This document shows positions 180-7,024 of a stretch of DNA of 7,149 nt, piece by piece. A program made the translations under genes and the position numbers. The stretch is taken from assembly GCA_040755715.1 (NCBI GenBank), contig JBFLXN010000140.1:1-7149 (forward strand), given 5' to 3'. The notes beneath the pieces are model-generated. The model was not told the origin of the DNA. It saw nothing but the letters and a program-made list of their open reading frames with translations, and did no database searches. Each line of letters begins with the position of its first letter. Position 1 is the stretch's first letter. This DNA is from JBFLXN01 sp040755715 [NCBI: Candidatus Edwardsbacteria bacterium]. GTDB lineage: Bacteria > Edwardsbacteria > AC1 > JBFLXN01.

Positions 180-203
180 AAGCACGGAATTTACCAGAAC
201 TAA

Positions 204-304
204 TTGTGTAAGGTGAAATGTTTGATGTGTAATGAAGAACATGACGATTATGGTGAGCAAAGCCGAACCATTACATTACACATTTCACATAACACATTAC
301 ACAA
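204..304. repeat. Inverted pair of heptamer tandem arrays
   Basis: Bases 205-232 read as four 7-mers, the first and fourth both TGTGTAA. Bases 276-303 read as four 7-mers, the first and fourth both TTACACA, which is the reverse complement of TGTGTAA. The outer units pair perfectly (8 bp, 204-211 with 297-304), as do the inner ones (226-232 with 276-282). A shifted register also pairs GTGAAATG (213-220) with CATTTCAC (281-288). The 43-base spacer has no clear feature. The same 7-bp design recurs elsewhere in the window. Confidence 0.8.
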
Positions 305-329: not shown

Positions 330-2063
330 TTAGGCCATTAAAAGGTAAAACCAAAGAAAAGTAATCCCCCCGGAGATGAGAAAACTAGCGTCAACCATAA
401 ATTCAAAACTCAAACCACGCCATACCATTCTTTGATGATACAAATAGAGATAGAGAAAGAGATAAAAAATAGGAATAATAAGGAGAAAACTTAAAACCGG
501 GTCTAGCCAGGAATTTCGTCCAGCGAAAAAAATGAATAGACCTAAAATGGAAATGAGGAATGTCAGAAGGAGTTTTGTCTTTTCTTTACCAATAAGAATG
601 GGCAGGGTTTCTTTGCCTACAATCATATCTCCTTGAATATCTCTGATGTCAAAAATTACAGAGCGGACAAAGACCAGAATGAATGAGAACAAGCCGGCAG
701 TCAAAGTATCCATTCCTAAGCCTTTATTTTGGCTAAATGGAGGTAAGACCGCAATGATTAAAGTCCAGGCCAGACTTTGAAACAGGTCTCTGGAGGCAGG
801 CAATTCTTGTAAACTGCGGAAGCCAAAAAATTTTGGGATAATTCTGATTCGGTAGACTAACCCGAATGCCGAAGCCAACAATACTACCAAAAAGGGCCGT
901 AAACCCAATAGAATTGAAAGAAAGAGTGTCCCCAGGCTTGAACATAGACCCAAGGTGACAAGTAAGAATTTATAATGTTCATAAAAAGCCACTCTGGCAG
1001 GCTCATTGAGTCTATTTGCCTTCTTATCGGTGAACTGGTTTAAAAGATGCATAGCAAAGACATAGAAGCCAGCGATGAAATGATAGATGAGACTTGGTTC
1101 AATTGCCTGCATCCGACAGGCGGCATAACTCAAACTTCCTGCTCCCAAGGCCAAAAAGAGATTGCTCTTGAATAAAAATGTCCAAAGAAAAGAGAGAAAA
1201 GTAAAAAGTCGGCTTTCATCTTTACCTCTAATGCTTTCTACAAGGCTTATTACCCTCTCAATCATCCAATTTGGAGTAGAAGCTCCAGCAGTAATACCAA
1301 TGCAATTAAATTGCCTCAGCCAGTCAGGATTTAATTCCTCTTCAGTCTCAACTCTAATTGTAGGTGTGCCCGAGGATTTAGAAATCTCGGCCAAGCGAGA
1401 GGTATTGGCACTCTCCCTACCTCCCACCACAACCATTGCCTCAACACTCTTTGCCAACTTTCTTACTTCCTTTTGTCTATCAGAAGTAGAACTGCAAATA
1501 GTATTAAAAACTTTGAAATCTTTGACTTTTTCTCCTACCCTTTTGGCAATCTCTCTAAAGACTTCTTCGTTTTGAGTAGTCTGAGCCACCAGACAAATTT
1601 TCCCCGCAGGGTCAATCTCTTCAAAAGATTCTCTCACATTGTTGATGACTCTTCCCTTTTCTTGAGCAAAATCAAGCAAAGCCTGCACTTCCGGATGCTC
1701 TTTGTCCCCGAGAATGAGAATTGTATAATCTTGAGTCACATATTTTTTTATGATGGCTTGAACTTTAGCCACTTTAGGGCAGGTGGCATCACAAATTTTA
1801 GCACCGCTGTTTTTGACTTTTTCTCGTTCTTGGGGACTAATTCCGTGAGTGCGAATGACTATTGTCTGACCGGCCAAGTCATTCAAATGGCTCTTTACTT
1901 CAATCCCTCGCAGGCGGAGCATTTGTAAAGCCTGATTGTTATGAATAAGTGGACCGTAAGTATAGATTGGCAGATTCTCTTTATTAGTTAAGCTAAGCAC
2001 CATTCCTATGGCTCGTCTGACGCCCCAGCAGAACCCAGCAGTTTTCGCTACTTTTACTTTCAT
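330..2063 (-). CDS. ispH: 4-hydroxy-3-methylbut-2-enyl diphosphate reductase (IspH/LytB) fused to a UbiA-type membrane prenyltransferase domain
   Basis: Residues 1 to about 280 are a full-length IspH, the last MEP-pathway enzyme, which uses a [4Fe-4S] cluster to turn HMBPP into IPP and DMAPP. Visible are cluster cysteines C12, C95 and C190, H41, H73 and H123 with E125 in HPEV, the QTT motif at 161-163, and S262 in TAGAS. The usual SSN substrate motif reads S218-A219-N220, so one serine is lost. Residues from about 290 to 577 are hydrophobic, with roughly nine membrane segments, and match UbiA-superfamily prenyltransferases. The second Asp motif is intact (D472, D475, G478, D479, then GKETLP). 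The first (342-350) keeps N342 and D346 but has Q343 and N350 where Asp is usual. The start is the only sensible one because residue 1 begins the IspH fold; GAGAGG lies about 12 bases upstream, with a promoter at 2123-2095. The prenyl substrate and acceptor cannot be read from sequence. Confidence 0.92.
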   Translation of the reverse strand: MKVKVAKTAGFCWGVRRAIGMVLSLTNKENLPIYTYGPLIHNNQALQMLRLRGIEVKSHLNDLAGQTIVIRTHGISPQEREKVKNSGAKICDATCPKVAKVQAIIKKYVTQDYTILILGDKEHPEVQALLDFAQEKGRVINNVRESFEEIDPAGKICLVAQTTQNEEVFREIAKRVGEKVKDFKVFNTICSSTSDRQKEVRKLAKSVEAMVVVGGRESANTSRLAEISKSSGTPTIRVETEEELNPDWLRQFNCIGITAGASTPNWMIERVISLVESIRGKDESRLFTFLSFLWTFLFKSNLFLALGAGSLSYAACRMQAIEPSLIYHFIAGFYVFAMHLLNQFTDKKANRLNEPARVAFYEHYKFLLVTLGLCSSLGTLFLSILLGLRPFLVVLLASAFGLVYRIRIIPKFFGFRSLQELPASRDLFQSLAWTLIIAVLPPFSQNKGLGMDTLTAGLFSFILVFVRSVIFDIRDIQGDMIVGKETLPILIGKEKTKLLLTFLISILGLFIFFAGRNSWLDPVLSFLLIIPIFYLFLYLYLYHQRMVWRGLSFEFMVDASFLISGGITFLWFYLLMA

Positions 2064-2220: not shown

Positions 2221-2303
2221 GACTATGAATTAACATGAAAGAGATAATCCATAGTCGACAGCAAATATTTTATCCGTGGACTATTGACCGTTGACTGTGG
2301 ACT
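2221..2303 (+). repeat. Leader with heptamer array and mutually exclusive hairpins
   Basis: Bases 2274-2303 are four 7-mers plus three bases, consensus C(C/T)(G/A)T(G/T)GA. Bases 2248-2261 are two units of the same kind in inverted orientation. The inverted pair can fold onto units 1-2 (2274-2287, 11 of 14 Watson-Crick, 12-base loop) or onto units 3-4 (2288-2301, 11 Watson-Crick plus 2 G-U of 14). A third hairpin, GACTATG 2221-2227 with CATAGTC 2250-2256 plus four further pairs, competes for the same strand. No T-run follows, so a terminator is not indicated. Known metabolite riboswitch features are not recognisable. Confidence 0.65.
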
Positions 2304-2335
2304 AAAAAATTCGTGGCAAAATTGAGGAGTAAAAT

Positions 2336-2899
2336 ATGGATAAAACAAACGATTTTAACGAAATAAAAGAAAGTATCAAAGACCTTATTGAAAGACAAAA
2401 GAAGACTGATGAGCAACTCAAGAAGACTGATGAGCAGATAAGAAGGACTGATAGAAATGTGGGAAATCTGACAGATGGATGGGGAAAGTTTGTGGAAGGG
2501 TTGGTTGAACCTTCTGTTCCTAAATTGTTTTCAAAATTGGGAATAAAGATATACGGGATATATCCGAGAGCAAGAAAGATTCTTAACAGAAGATATTTAG
2601 AGATAGATGTTTTAGGAACAGGGCAAAGAAAGGATGGGAGAGAAGTAGTCATTGTTACAGAAGTAAAAAGTGAATTAAAGCAACGAGATGTAGATGATGT
2701 AGTAGAAACTTTAAATCTCTTTCCAAAGTTTTTTAAAGAATATAAAGACAGAGAGATAATTGGTGCGGTAGCAGGTATAAGACTTCAAAAAGGGATAGAG
2801 AGATATGCTGAGAGACGGGGATTGTATGTGTTGGCTCCCTCTGGGGAGACGATGATGATTCTGAATGAGAAGGGTTTTAAGCCAAAGGTTTGGTCATGA
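2336..2899 (+). CDS. Coiled-coil protein with PD-(D/E)xK nuclease-like domain
   Basis: The protein has 187 residues. Residues 1 to about 45 are charged and helical, with three near-identical heptads at 22-42 (KKTDEQL, KKTDEQI, RRTDRNV), typical of a coiled coil. Residues from about 50 to 187 look like a PD-(D/E)xK fold: a helix carrying E54 and E58, a strand with E89-I-D91, and a second strand with E109-V-K111, giving a D...E-x-K active-site pattern. The architecture resembles the DUF3782-type proteins seen in cyanobacteria, archaea and candidate phyla; substrate and role are unknown. TGAGGAG lies 6 bases before the ATG. The stop overlaps the purD start (ATGA, 2896-2899), so it is probably translationally coupled to purD, although no purine role is known for the family. 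No signal peptide or membrane segment is seen. Confidence 0.8.
   Translation: MDKTNDFNEIKESIKDLIERQKKTDEQLKKTDEQIRRTDRNVGNLTDGWGKFVEGLVEPSVPKLFSKLGIKIYGIYPRARKILNRRYLEIDVLGTGQRKDGREVVIVTEVKSELKQRDVDDVVETLNLFPKFFKEYKDREIIGAVAGIRLQKGIERYAERRGLYVLAPSGETMMILNEKGFKPKVWS
2399..2461 (+). repeat. Three 21-bp in-frame repeats encoding coiled-coil heptads
   Basis: Units start at 2399, 2420 and 2441. The first two share the initial 17 bases exactly (aagaagactgatgagca), and the third has diverged. Each encodes one heptad. Slippage would change coiled-coil length without breaking the reading frame. Confidence 0.85.
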
Positions 2900-4179
2900 A
2901 AGTTTTAGTAGTTGGTTCTGGAGGGAGAGAACATGCCCTCATCTGGAAGATAAACCAGAGTGAGAAAGTAAGTAAGATTTATGCCGCCCCGGGCAATCCA
3001 GGCATCGCCAAATTGGCGGAATGCGTGAATATTCAAGCTTTAGCCATAGAAGACTTAGCTAACTTTGCCAATAAAGAGAAGATAGACCTCACTGTAGTAG
3101 GCCCAGAATCACCCTTGATTGCCGGGATTACAGACGAATTTGAAAAGAGAGGATTAAGAATCTTTGGACCGAACAAGAAAGCCGCCGCCCTTGAAGGAAG
3201 CAAAGCCTTTGCTAAGGAATTGATGCATAGATATAAAGTGCCTACTGCTGACTATCAGATTTTTTCTGATTTTGAAAAAGCATCTCAATATGTAAAAAAT
3301 TGTCCTTTCTCTTTTGTGATTAAAGCCGACGGTGAAGCTGCCGGTAAAGGAGCAATCATTCCCAAAGACAAAGAAGAAGCCATTTCTATTTTGCAAAATA
3401 TGATGATAGAAAAAATCTTCGGACCTTCGGGAGAAAAAGTTGTCATTGAACAAAAATTAGAAGGTGAAGAAATTTCTCTTTTGGCTTTCACTGATGGTGA
3501 AACTGTTTTGCCGATGATTCCTTCGCAAGACCACAAACGAGTTTTTGACTACAATCAAGGTCCGAATACCGGCGGAATGGGAGCCTATGCCCCAGTTCCT
3601 TTTATAAATGCAGAAATGGTGGAGAGAATGAAGAGAGAGATTTTAGTTCCTGTAATTAAAGGGCTAAAAGGAGAAGGAATAAAATATAAAGGGGTAATTT
3701 ATGCCGGTTTAATCTTAACTAAAGACGGTCCGAAAGTTTTGGAATTTAATTGTCGTTTTGGCGACCCCGAAACACAAGCAATCTTGCCCCTACTGCAAAC
3801 TGATTTAGTAGATTTACTTTTGGCTACTTTAGAAGAAAGACTAAATGAAATTAACTTTTTCTGGTATGAAGGTTTTTGTGTCTGTGTAGTCTTGGCCTCT
3901 AAGGGGTATCCCGGGAAATATAAAAAAGGCAAAGTAATTAAAGGGATGGAAGAAGCAGAAAAAGAAGCGCTACTCTTTCATGCTGGAACCAGTTTTTTAA
4001 GCACGCCTGCTGCCTACTGCTCACTGCCTACTGTAGTTACCGGGGGGGGAAGAGTTTTGGGAGTGACTGCCTTAGGAGACACGCTCAAGGAGGCAAGGGA
4101 CAAGACCTATCAGGCAGTAGCCAAAATACAATTTGAGGGAATGCATTATCGCCGAGATATCGGAGAGAAGTATGAATAA
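2896..4179 (+). CDS. purD: Phosphoribosylamine-glycine ligase (GAR synthetase)
   Basis: PurD joins glycine to phosphoribosylamine using ATP, the second step of de novo purine synthesis in the cytoplasm. The 427-residue protein is a typical length. It shows the N-terminal GSGGREHAL (8-16), GPESPL (69-74), GSKAFAKELM (101-110), the ATP-grasp glycine loop ADGEAAGKGA (144-153), QDHKR (211-215), PNTGGMGAY (223-231) and the metal-binding EFNCRFGDPETQ (283-294). ATG 2896 is chosen over TTG 2890: it begins the conserved MKVLVVG strand, has AAAGG 7 bases upstream and makes an ATGA overlap with the previous gene. Near the C terminus, between HAGT (362-365) and VVT (380-382), there are 14 residues where I expect about seven. 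The excess coincides with three 7-bp repeats at 4010-4030. The ATP-grasp core is intact, so the enzyme is probably functional. Confidence 0.97.
   Translation: MKVLVVGSGGREHALIWKINQSEKVSKIYAAPGNPGIAKLAECVNIQALAIEDLANFANKEKIDLTVVGPESPLIAGITDEFEKRGLRIFGPNKKAAALEGSKAFAKELMHRYKVPTADYQIFSDFEKASQYVKNCPFSFVIKADGEAAGKGAIIPKDKEEAISILQNMMIEKIFGPSGEKVVIEQKLEGEEISLLAFTDGETVLPMIPSQDHKRVFDYNQGPNTGGMGAYAPVPFINAEMVERMKREILVPVIKGLKGEGIKYKGVIYAGLILTKDGPKVLEFNCRFGDPETQAILPLLQTDLVDLLLATLEERLNEINFFWYEGFCVCVVLASKGYPGKYKKGKVIKGMEEAEKEALLFHAGTSFLSTPAAYCSLPTVVTGGGRVLGVTALGDTLKEARDKTYQAVAKIQFEGMHYRRDIGEKYE
4010..4030 (+). repeat. Three-unit heptamer array inside purD
   Basis: Three consecutive 7-mers read CTGCCTA, CTGCTCA, CTGCCTA, with a fourth partial unit starting CTG at 4031. 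Twenty-one bases keep the frame and encode residues 372-379 in part. Removing exactly 4010-4030 rejoins the frame as ...STPA-VVT and leaves seven residues between HAGT and VVT. Confidence 0.8.
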
Positions 4180-4615
4180 GAAGAATATTGTCACCGCCTT
4201 AAAGAATTTCTTCAAAGAAAACGCTTCTCTATTTAATATTGACATGGCATTTTTGTATGGTTCCTGGGCCAGAGGATATCCCAGAAAGGATTCGGATGTA
4301 GATATAGCCTTAGTATTCCTGGCTAAATCCAGTAATGAAAATATTACTTTTAAAATTCTAACAGACATATCCTTTGAGCTCTCTATGAAGGTAAAAAAGG
4401 AAGTTAATATTATCTCTATTAGTTGGGATTTCGTCAAACCTCTAGTATCTTACAATGCCATTGTCTTAGGCCTACCACTTTATATTAAAGATTTTGAAAG
4501 ATATGTTGCTTTAAAGAATTATGCGATTGTCCAGATGGAGGATTTTCGTCTTTTTGGACTTAAATGGCAGTTAGAAATAGCCGAAAGAAACCTTGAGGTT
4601 TTAAGATATGCCTAA
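4172..4615 (+). CDS. mntA: MntA-like minimal nucleotidyltransferase (probable antitoxin)
   Basis: The protein has 147 residues. It carries the nucleotidyltransferase signature as GS (30-31), ten residues, then D42-V-D44, exactly the GSX10DXD pattern of MntA. In the studied type VII systems MntA uses ATP to add AMP units to a tyrosine of its HEPN partner and so silences it. The next gene encodes such a partner. The position where many family members have a third acidic residue (vDl) appears to be N79 in EVNII, which may lower activity; this is an inference from family memory. ATG 4172 is preferred to the TTG at 4133: GGAGA lies 5 bases upstream and it overlaps purD by only 8 bases. It overlaps the HEPN gene by 8 bases. 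Some MNT/HEPN pairs are uncharacterised, so function is by motif only. Confidence 0.82.
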   Translation: MNKKNIVTALKNFFKENASLFNIDMAFLYGSWARGYPRKDSDVDIALVFLAKSSNENITFKILTDISFELSMKVKKEVNIISISWDFVKPLVSYNAIVLGLPLYIKDFERYVALKNYAIVQMEDFRLFGLKWQLEIAERNLEVLRYA

Positions 4616-5039
4616 ATTTTCTTATGCAAAAGGTAGAGTTAATGAATCATTACAATTTATTACGGAAGAAATGCGCGAGTTTAAAGAAGAGTATTCTTCT
4701 AAACTTTGGCAAGATTATCAAAATGATAAAAAACTTCAGAAGCTAATGGATAGAACCGTAGAGAATATTCTTACTGCATTGATTGAGATGAGCGGAACTT
4801 TACTAACGGAAGAAGAAGTGGCGGTGGAAAGTTATTCGGATGCCTTAAAAAAGGTGGCGTCTCTCTTAAGGTTTAATGAGGAAGAACAAGAAGAACTGGC
4901 TAAATTGGCAATTGCTCGCAATCGGTTAGCCCATCGGTATCTAAACTTTCGCTGGCAAGCTATAAAAATGTATGTGGAGAAGCAAAATTTGATTCAAAGA
5001 CTACTTACCGCGGTGTTGGAAAAAGAAAAGGGGCTTTAA
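4608..5039 (+). CDS. hepT: HepT-like HEPN-domain protein (probable RNase toxin)
   Basis: The protein has 143 residues and is predicted all-helical, as in the HEPN/DUF86 family. The signature RNRLAHRY (104-111) gives R104-X4-H109-X-Y111, the complete RX4HXY motif. In HepT toxins R and H form the RNase site and the Tyr is the residue AMPylated by MntA. A helix DRTVENILTALIE (48-60) matches the family's conserved dimer helix. GAGG lies 9 bases upstream of the ATG, and the start overlaps the mntA stop by 8 bases. Gene order is antitoxin then toxin, inside a purine operon. Housekeeping HEPN-MNT pairs without demonstrated toxicity also exist, so toxin activity is inferred. Confidence 0.82.
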   Translation: MPKFSYAKGRVNESLQFITEEMREFKEEYSSKLWQDYQNDKKLQKLMDRTVENILTALIEMSGTLLTEEEVAVESYSDALKKVASLLRFNEEEQEELAKLAIARNRLAHRYLNFRWQAIKMYVEKQNLIQRLLTAVLEKEKGL

Positions 5040-5504: not shown

Positions 5505-5541
5505 ATAAGGCTCTTCACGGAGTATACTGGATAGATAAATT

Positions 5542-5621
5542 TCAATTATCAATTGGCAATTAACCATGGAGAATACAGAGAAGGAGAAAAAAATAATGTT
5601 GAAATGCTAATTGACAATTTT
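5542..5621. repeat. Inverted heptamer arrays upstream of the HTH-KaiC pair
   Basis: Bases 5542-5562 are three 7-mers (TCAATTA, TCAATTG, GCAATTA). Bases 5601-5614 include GAAATGC and TAATTGA, the latter being the exact reverse complement of TCAATTA, with a partial unit to 5621. The 38 bases between include AAGGAG (5581-5586) and an ATG at 5596 that opens only four codons. The right array abuts a 22-bp perfect palindrome. Confidence 0.7.
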
Positions 5622-6880: not shown

Positions 6881-7024
6881 TACACAGAAACATACAGAAA
6901 AATAGAAATTCATAGAAATATAAGAAGAAATTCATAGAAATAGATTGAAACTGATAGAAATTAATTGAAAAGATGAATTCCAATGAGTTTCCATAAATTT
7001 CAATGAATTTCAACAAATTTCTGT
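6881..7024. repeat. Phased 10-bp repeat array with inverted halves
   Basis: In the left half, GAAA recurs at 10-base spacing (ending at 6890, 6900, 6930, 6940, 6950, 6960 and 6970, with a short phase slip at 6904-6920). In the right half, TTTC recurs at 10-base spacing (starting at 6988, 6998, 7008 and 7018). The halves are imperfect inverted repeats: 6934-6970 against 6988-7024 gives 28 Watson-Crick pairs and one G-U in 37 positions. A 17-bp exact direct repeat occurs at 6904-6920 and 6926-6942. No coding potential is seen. The stretch 6835-6880 just before it shows nothing recognisable. Confidence 0.8.

What the first reader, a model, noticed from the sequence alone, without database searches (positions are those of the whole stretch)
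4010..4030. Heptamer repeat inserted in frame in purD
Three 7-bp units (CTGCCTA-like) lie exactly where the protein is seven residues longer than I expect between HAGT and VVT. Removing 4010-4030 restores a seven-residue spacing and rejoins the frame cleanly. Three units is the smallest number of heptamers that keeps frame, so this looks like expansion or insertion of an intergenic-type repeat in an essential gene.
Basis: partly seen in the sequence, partly recalled or inferred. Interest (0 to 1): 0.72.

Follow-up and report, generated by a model that had tools for sequence, protein, structure and literature searches.

The report
Heptamer repeats inserted into enzyme loops
A short 7-letter DNA repeat appears to have slipped into a tolerant loop of an essential purine-making enzyme without breaking its reading frame, and related bacteria carry other 7-letter repeats in the same loop and in other essential enzymes, which points to spreading repeat DNA that keeps remodelling protein surfaces.

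Summary
The purD repeat is about 4.1 imperfect 7-nt copies at 4005-4033, not three at 4010-4030. The loop has 16 residues; 76 of 135 loops compared have 8 and 13 have 9, so the excess is 7 or 8 residues and exactly 21 bp is not shown. By itself the repeat is only moderately unlikely (7 of 5000 codon shuffles; 20 of 1000 over several periods). Relatives decide it: 17 of 135 loops, window included, carry a 7-nt array, mostly with different units, needing at least 13 changes on a PurD tree. In-frame arrays recur in PurL, PurM and PurQ and lie in MurB, MurE, PheT, RecG and SerS of one genome. Units are shared within a neighbourhood far above chance, two tested units are dispersed families of single genomes, and units at one site do not follow relatedness. 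Best reading: small arrays are copied around the genome and survive in frame at tolerant loops, like Rickettsia palindromic elements but built of heptamers. The copying enzyme is unknown; the window's phylum (probably Omnitrophota) is not certain.

The parts
2896..4179 (+). purD, phosphoribosylamine--glycine ligase (GAR synthetase), the host gene; its ATG overlaps the stop of the upstream ORF
   Evidence: ORF list (the ATG at 2896 is my choice over the listed TTG at 2890); Pfam GARS_N, GARS_A, GARS_C; 56-59% identity to the ten best matches in the phylum of an Omnitrophota genome
4005..4033 (+). array of about 4.1 imperfect heptamers, consensus unit GCCTACT (other strand, rotated: CAGTAGG)
   Evidence: TRF period 7, 77% matches; lag-7 16 of 21
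3991..4038 (+). extended loop of the PurD C domain, SFLSTPAAYCSLPTVV, 16 residues against 8 or 9 in most relatives
   Evidence: survey of 135 loops; alignment with 9 homologues; AlphaFold2 model: coil between strands 364-367 and 378-381, pLDDT under 50 at residues 370-374, numbered from the lysine at 2899
202..304 (.). intergenic heptamer array with an inverted partner, a potential hairpin (arms 204-234 and 274-304, 81% complementary)
   Evidence: TRF 273-303 period 7; inverted repeat
2221..2307 (.). intergenic stretch with 7-nt periodicity and short inverted arms (2221-2232 with 2245-2256; 2248-2259 with 2276-2287)
   Evidence: lag-7 15 of 21 at 2276, not listed by TRF; inverted repeats
5534..5619 (.). 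intergenic stretch with 7-nt periodicity and inverted arms (5544-5567 with 5596-5619, 79% complementary)
   Evidence: lag-7 15 of 21 at 5537, not listed by TRF; inverted repeat

Best explanation
The purD loop carries one copy of a small tandem array (about four 7-nt units) of a kind that this group of bacteria spreads through its genomes. Arrays are copied to new places, in either orientation; those landing in genes survive only if they keep the frame, bring no stop codon and fall in a tolerant surface loop. Shown here: the array, its frame, its place in a loop, recurrence at the same loop with other units, recurrence in other essential enzymes, and genome-specific dispersed families for two units. 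Inferred: that copying, rather than only local slippage, places the arrays, and that the window's own array arose that way. Unknown: the enzyme. The effect on PurD is most likely neutral: a disordered extension of a hairpin turn (inferred from the model).
For: Same loop, mostly different units, in 17 of 135 loops, at least 13 changes on the tree, 7 of them forced by supported branches. 157 arrays in 62 of 141 neighbourhoods, 90 inside ORFs, 80 of those 90 internal, most in PurL 25, PurM 19, PurD 17, PurQ 16. In two array-rich genomes 18 of 29 further arrays lie in ORFs, among them CarA in one and MurB, MurE, PheT, RecG, SerS in the other. Exact unit sharing in 9 of 173 pairs within a neighbourhood against 39 of 12047 between; 0 of 2000 permutations reach 9. 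TTGGTCG x3: 15 hits in G110, 3 in G160, 2 in G345, none in the other 381 of 384 genomes. CAGTCAC x3: 18 hits (14 places) in G021, 0-2 hits in the 19 others. Unit similarity at a site does not follow relatedness. A 57-nt composite of heptamers and a palindrome is identical in two genes of one genome, MiaB and a PurM. Loop with low confidence, hence probably disordered, in the model.
Against: No genome is held for the window, so its own unit could not be sought elsewhere in its genome, and CTGCCTA x3 was absent from the 20 genomes tried. The window's array is degenerate (77%). Its intergenic arrays have other units. ACGAGGG x3 occurred at only one place in each of two of 20 genomes, so not every unit is a dispersed family. 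No empty and filled pair of very close relatives was available (highest PurD identity to the window 60%); no target-site duplication was sought. Presence of the array is somewhat clustered on the tree (13 changes against a shuffled mean of 16.3), so some arrays may be inherited. Minor 8-nt arrays exist. Net loop lengths are not clean multiples of 7 residues.
Confidence: 0.68

Rival explanations
1. Local expansion: replication slippage amplified a chance 7-nt duplication inside each purD gene, and selection kept the frame. 7 nt is favoured because of polymerase contact length.
For: Arrays are tandem with a preferred period; PMC4679880 reports the proposal of Mrazek and colleagues (2007) that 7 nt may be the length contacted by DNA polymerase; mixed and alternating units within single arrays.
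Against: Exact units are shared between distant places of one neighbourhood far above chance; two tested units are dispersed in single genomes; a composite heptamer-palindrome copy is identical in two genes. Slippage may still homogenise arrays once placed.
Confidence: 0.2
2. The extended loop is adaptive, for example a contact surface between purine enzymes or an RNA-level signal, and the repeats are its raw material.
For: In the purD neighbourhoods 77 of 90 coding arrays lie in PurL, PurM, PurQ and PurD ORFs; a 17-residue non-periodic loop with similar residues recurs in several genomes.
Against: Units and peptides differ between sister genomes; unrelated enzymes carry arrays as well; most relatives have the short loop.
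Confidence: 0.07
3. Chance 7-nt similarity inside an ordinary loop extension.
For: 20 of 1000 codon shuffles of this gene reach the same score at some lag from 4 to 20 not divisible by 3; 26 of 135 loops are long without an array.
Against: The array coincides with the extra residues; the same loop bears arrays in 16 other sequences of the 135.
Confidence: 0.05

Closest known systems
Rickettsia palindromic elements (RPE) in protein genes (review PMC2229807, passages seen)
   Same: Repeat DNA found between genes and also fused in frame inside conserved proteins, apparently tolerated; the same review describes a repeat-derived signal peptide for a Yersinia element
   Different: RPE are 105-146 bp palindromic elements with terminal inverted repeats; here the coding element is tandem heptamers with a median span of 31 nt, and 4 of 90 coding arrays have an inverted partner within 250 nt
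Dispersed bacterial heptamer arrays: TAACTGA in Beggiatoaceae, cyanobacteria and Bacteroidetes (PMC4679880, passages and introduction read); GGGAATC in Xanthomonas and GGGGA(C/T)T in Nostoc (PMC4692102, passages); four-unit GGACCGG in Geobacter metallireducens (PMC2700814, passages); GATAGRA in Chloroflexus (PMC6749651, passages)
   Same: Unit of 7 nt; four units commonest in Xanthomonas and given as the rule for the Geobacter element; genome-specific families; inverted pairs in Xanthomonas; copies inside genes in Geobacter, Nostoc and a few in Xanthomonas; transposition suspected for short-repeat satellites
   Different: The passages seen describe one or a few unit sequences per genome and no repeated in-frame insertion at one loop; here 118 different units in 157 arrays and the same loops of essential enzymes hit again and again
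Constant-size, variable-sequence tandem repeats in Bacillus and other bacteria (PMC8161180, passages seen)
   Same: Fixed unit length with genome-specific sequence families
   Different: Units of 52 or 20-21 nt; the large families are stated to lie outside protein-coding genes
Borg tandem repeats (PMC9879509, passages seen)
   Same: Tandem repeats inside proteins, often disordered, arising independently
   Different: Borg coding units are divisible by three; 7 nt is not, so here the net insertion, not the unit, keeps the frame

Membership tests
Bacterial heptamer simple-sequence arrays (the name STRR for the cyanobacterial kind is recalled) | tandem units of 7 nt, period 7 dominant over neighbouring periods | tested here: met
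   118 arrays of period 7 at score 40 or more against 2 (period 6) and 21 (period 8); 0 of each in block shuffles; the window array has period 7. In regions of G378 and G110 periods 7 and 8 are nearly equal, 22 and 20
Bacterial heptamer simple-sequence arrays (the name STRR for the cyanobacterial kind is recalled) | mostly intergenic | tested here: inconclusive
   by number more lie inside ORFs (90 of 157); by density noncoding DNA is richer (49 in 157 kb, 0.31 per kb)
Bacterial heptamer simple-sequence arrays (the name STRR for the cyanobacterial kind is recalled) | one or few unit sequences per genome | tested here: not met
   118 distinct units in 157 arrays over 62 neighbourhoods; several different units in single neighbourhoods such as L085, L080 and L170
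Rickettsia palindromic elements | in-frame insertion into conserved protein genes | tested here: met
   arrays inside PurD, PurL, PurM, PurQ, CarA, MurB, MurE, PheT, RecG, SerS and MiaB frames
Rickettsia palindromic elements | palindrome of about 100-150 bp with terminal inverted repeats | tested here: not met
   no inverted partner of the window's purD array found at 3950-4180; only 4 of 90 coding arrays have one within 250 nt
REP elements moved by Y1 (RAYT) transposases | dependence on a Y1 transposase | tested here: inconclusive
   Y1_Tnp matches 3.5 per genome in 25 genomes with array-rich neighbourhoods against 1.6 in 25 with array-free ones, Mann-Whitney p 0.028, not corrected for relatedness; 2 of 25 rich genomes have none
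PurD (GAR synthetase) | GARS_N, GARS_A (ATP-grasp) and GARS_C domains | tested here: met
   all three over the Pfam cut-off

The most novel reading that the evidence does not exclude
These bacteria run an active, enzyme-driven process that writes short arrays of about four 7-nt (sometimes 8-nt) units, with unit sequence drawn from a genome-specific and fast-changing pool, at many sites and on both strands. By repeatedly extending tolerant loops of essential enzymes, and supplying hydrophobic cores of signal peptides, it works as a standing generator of new protein surface.
Probability: 0.25. Interest if true: 0.85.

Novelty: new variant of a known kind. Interest (0 to 1): 0.62.

Why it matters
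Why 7-nt repeats abound in bacteria, and how they spread, is open. Here they recur in frame at the same loops of essential enzymes with units that differ between near relatives, so each protein loop is an alignable trap that records arrival, unit type and turnover. That turns the question of dispersal versus local slippage into something countable, and offers a natural experiment in which loops of conserved enzymes tolerate insertion. It also warns that loop indels in such genomes are poor phylogenetic markers.

Tried and rejected
Pur-only targeting: in the purD neighbourhoods 77 of 90 coding arrays lie in PurL, PurM, PurD and PurQ ORFs, 2 more in ORFs I read as PurM, 11 elsewhere (the zero shown there for 'other' ORFs is by construction, because every hit family was made a reference). 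The starts of 20 other contigs of two array-rich genomes show arrays in many other genes, so purine genes alone are not the target; an enrichment in them is not excluded.

Inherited unit: if one ancestral array had been passed down, near relatives should share units at a site. Rank correlation of PurD identity with unit distance was 0.06, -0.06 and -0.05 for PurM, PurD and PurQ (17, 17 and 15 genomes; two of the 17 PurD ORFs, L087 and L161, bear their array at the C terminus, not in the loop), none significant. Mean unit distance was 2.76 in 96 pairs at 70% PurD identity or more and 2.86 in 281 pairs below; random pairs of arrays gave 3.14, so units at one site are slightly more alike than random ones. 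Inheritance is rejected only at this divergence.

One consensus unit: no common motif; ACT/AGT occurs in 37 of 118 units against 17.3 expected, too weak for a recognition site. My early impression of a CAGTNNN family is not upheld.

Y1 transposase as mover: weak association only.

Exact 21-bp insertion: loop lengths with arrays are 12, 13, 14 (3), 15 (6), 16 (2), 18 (2), 21, 26, so not a clean +7 residues.

Outside controls are thin: Elusimicrobiota purD loops could not be read; seven loci of other phyla, 116 kb, have one period-7 array at score 40. An IspH-UbiA search to place the window gave 26-43% identity to full-length IspH matches; the phylum stays probable, not shown.

Sampling and dropped rows: 140 of the 370 genomes with a PurD match were fetched, best-scoring first, so the sample leans to the window's relatives. 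12 of 151 purD sequences did not fit the loop pattern (listed there) and are not in the tree. Six rows of other or unnamed phyla were left out of the tree and one (L004, Nitrospiraceae) kept, leaving 133. Near-threshold hits in AT-rich DNA (such as L076, L109) are counted among the 157 and may be chance. The script label PurC is PurQ by NCBIfam, tested on the L085 member.

Full report
What is in the window. purD runs from about 2896 to 4179 on the + strand; all three GARS domains are over their cut-offs. A period-7 array lies at 4005-4033, 4.1 copies, 77% matches. Lag-7 matching is 16 of 21 there. The other places at 15 or more of 21 are intergenic: around 270-280, 2276 and 5537. All three have inverted arms: 204-234 with 274-304; short arms around 2221-2287; 5544-5567 with 5596-5619.

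How unusual it is by itself. Shuffling the codons of purD gives a lag-7 score of 16 or more in 7 of 5000 trials; shuffling synonymous codons in 6 of 2000; allowing any lag from 4 to 20 not divisible by three, 20 of 1000. So the array alone is suggestive, not decisive.

Loop length. In an alignment with nine homologues (45-54% identity) only the window has the long segment after HAGT. Of 135 loops read from 140 fetched neighbourhoods and the window, 76 have 8 residues, 13 have 9, and the window 16. The excess is therefore 7 or 8 residues. The AlphaFold2 model (mean pLDDT 89) shows the segment as a coil between strands 364-367 and 378-381, with pLDDT under 50 at residues 370-374, which the array encodes: a hairpin turn by my reading.

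Relatives. The first named relative was an Omnitrophota genome at 53% identity. In 384 genomes of its phylum 370 had a match, the ten best at 56-59% identity. I fetched neighbourhoods of purD, up to 19 kb each, from 140 of those 370, best-scoring first. 17 of 135 loops hold a 7-nt array, window included. The units mostly differ, for example GTCCCTC in L057, AACTCCG in L098, GTCCACA in L054; CAGTCAC recurs in L060, L070, L080 and L134. On a FastTree tree of 133 PurD rows with the loop left out, presence of the array needs at least 13 changes, 7 of them forced by well supported branches; the shuffled mean is 16.3, so there is some clustering. Neighbouring rows bear different units: L049, L052, L060; L134, L144; L050, L057, L080.

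A wider process. In 2.10 Mb (141 sequences, window included) Tandem Repeats Finder gives 118 arrays of period 7 at score 40 or more, 2 of period 6 and 21 of period 8; block-shuffled sequence gives 0 of each. After merging, at a looser cut, there are 157 arrays in 62 of 141 sequences: 90 inside ORFs of 100 codons or more, 18 partly, 49 outside. The coding ones lie at recurrent places: PurM between YVKPVLSLL and GIAHITGG, PurQ between FEDRWVYL and CVWTK, four places in PurL, and the PurD loop. By family: PurL 25, PurM 19, PurD 17, PurQ 16, 2 in ORFs I read as PurM, 11 elsewhere (of the PurD 17 those of L087 and L161 are C-terminal; PurM, PurQ and PurL names were confirmed by NCBIfam on L085). 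80 of 90 are internal and 10 near a terminus, where a wrong start may explain some.

To see whether purine genes are special I read 320.9 kb from the starts of 20 other contigs of two array-rich genomes, G378 and G110: 29 arrays, 18 in ORFs, 2 partly, 9 outside. Hosts confirmed by NCBIfam are CarA (G378) and MurB, MurE, PheT, RecG and SerS (G110); MiaB in a further genome, L093. Several arrays make up the hydrophobic part of what look like signal peptides (my reading), such as LLVIGYWLLVIGLCGC in L198.

Units. 157 arrays show 118 different units; four units is the commonest array length inside and outside genes, though the detection threshold favours four or more. Pairs of arrays more than 500 bp apart in one neighbourhood share the exact unit in 9 of 173 cases, against 39 of 12047 between neighbourhoods; none of 2000 permutations reached 9. 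Whole-genome searches show dispersal for two units: TTGGTCG three times in tandem gives 15 hits in G110, 3 in G160, 2 in G345 and none in the other 381 of 384 genomes; CAGTCAC three times gives 18 hits at 14 places in G021, 2 in G124, 1 each in G378, G234 and G015, none in the 15 others of 20. Hits that overlap in one array count more than once. Against this, ACGAGGG three times occurs at one place in each of two of 20 genomes, and the window's CTGCCTA three times in none of 20. At a given site unit similarity does not follow PurD identity, though units at one site are slightly more alike than random ones. In L093 a 57-nt stretch (heptamers, a palindrome, heptamers) is identical in MiaB and in an ORF similar to the L085 PurM. 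Intergenic arrays have an inverted partner within 250 nt in 16 of 49 cases, partly coding ones in 2 of 18, coding ones in 4 of 90; distant controls 0 of 46, 0 of 18 and 0 of 87. Palindromes are nested in coding arrays of L093, L108 and L178 (my reading).

Reading. Local slippage alone does not readily give the same unit at many places in one genome and nowhere in hundreds of others, nor an identical composite in two genes. Copying of small arrays with a filter for frame and tolerant loops does. The mover is not known: Y1 transposases are somewhat commoner in genomes with array-rich neighbourhoods (3.5 against 1.6 per genome, p 0.028, 25 and 25 genomes), but two rich genomes lack a match. Octamer arrays of about four units also occur, so period 7 is the main, not the only, unit.

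Known comparisons. In-frame repeat elements in conserved genes are known from Rickettsia (PMC2229807, passages). Heptamer arrays are known from several bacteria, including within genes (PMC4679880, PMC4692102, PMC2700814, PMC6749651; passages and one introduction), and fixed-length variable-sequence arrays from Bacillus (PMC8161180, passages). In the rows shown by nine searches of the held open-access library I saw no report of heptamers in Omnitrophota protein loops; the listings were capped and subscription papers are not held, so this is not proof of absence in print.

Noticed in passing
window 330-2063 (-): One ORF of 577 aa joins a LytB (IspH) domain to a UbiA prenyltransferase domain; in 78 genomes of the phylum of G001 no match spanned both parts (one weak separate match lay in the UbiA part).
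   Followed up: partly
window 4169-5039: A nucleotidyltransferase (Polbeta/NTP_transf_2) gene and a HepT-like gene, a likely toxin-antitoxin pair, sit between purD and purE; the first also matches PADLOC candidate PDC-S09.
   Followed up: partly
window 6884-7021: AT-rich tract of degenerate 10-nt repeats (AATAGAAATT, ATGAATTTCA), a different period from the heptamers.
   Followed up: no
L161 10060-10109: The purD loop of this genome holds a different element, a palindrome GGGGACAGGTCTC...GAGACCTGTCCCC, also in frame.
   Followed up: partly
L093 602-658 and 4690-4746: Identical 57-nt composite of heptamers and a palindrome in two genes of one genome, in frame in both.
   Followed up: partly
L198 12051-12096, L202 10160-10191, L194 18372-18401: Heptamer arrays form what look like the hydrophobic cores of N-terminal signal peptides.
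   Followed up: no
L067, L074, L087, L091, L116, L137: A non-periodic 17-residue purD loop with similar residues (around NDVGQ) recurs in genomes several of whose tree neighbours have short loops; possibly an old insertion kept or repeatedly lost.
   Followed up: no
L189, L202, L203, L205 and others: Octamer arrays of about four units, nearly as many as heptamers in the regions read from G378 and G110 (20 against 22).
   Followed up: partly
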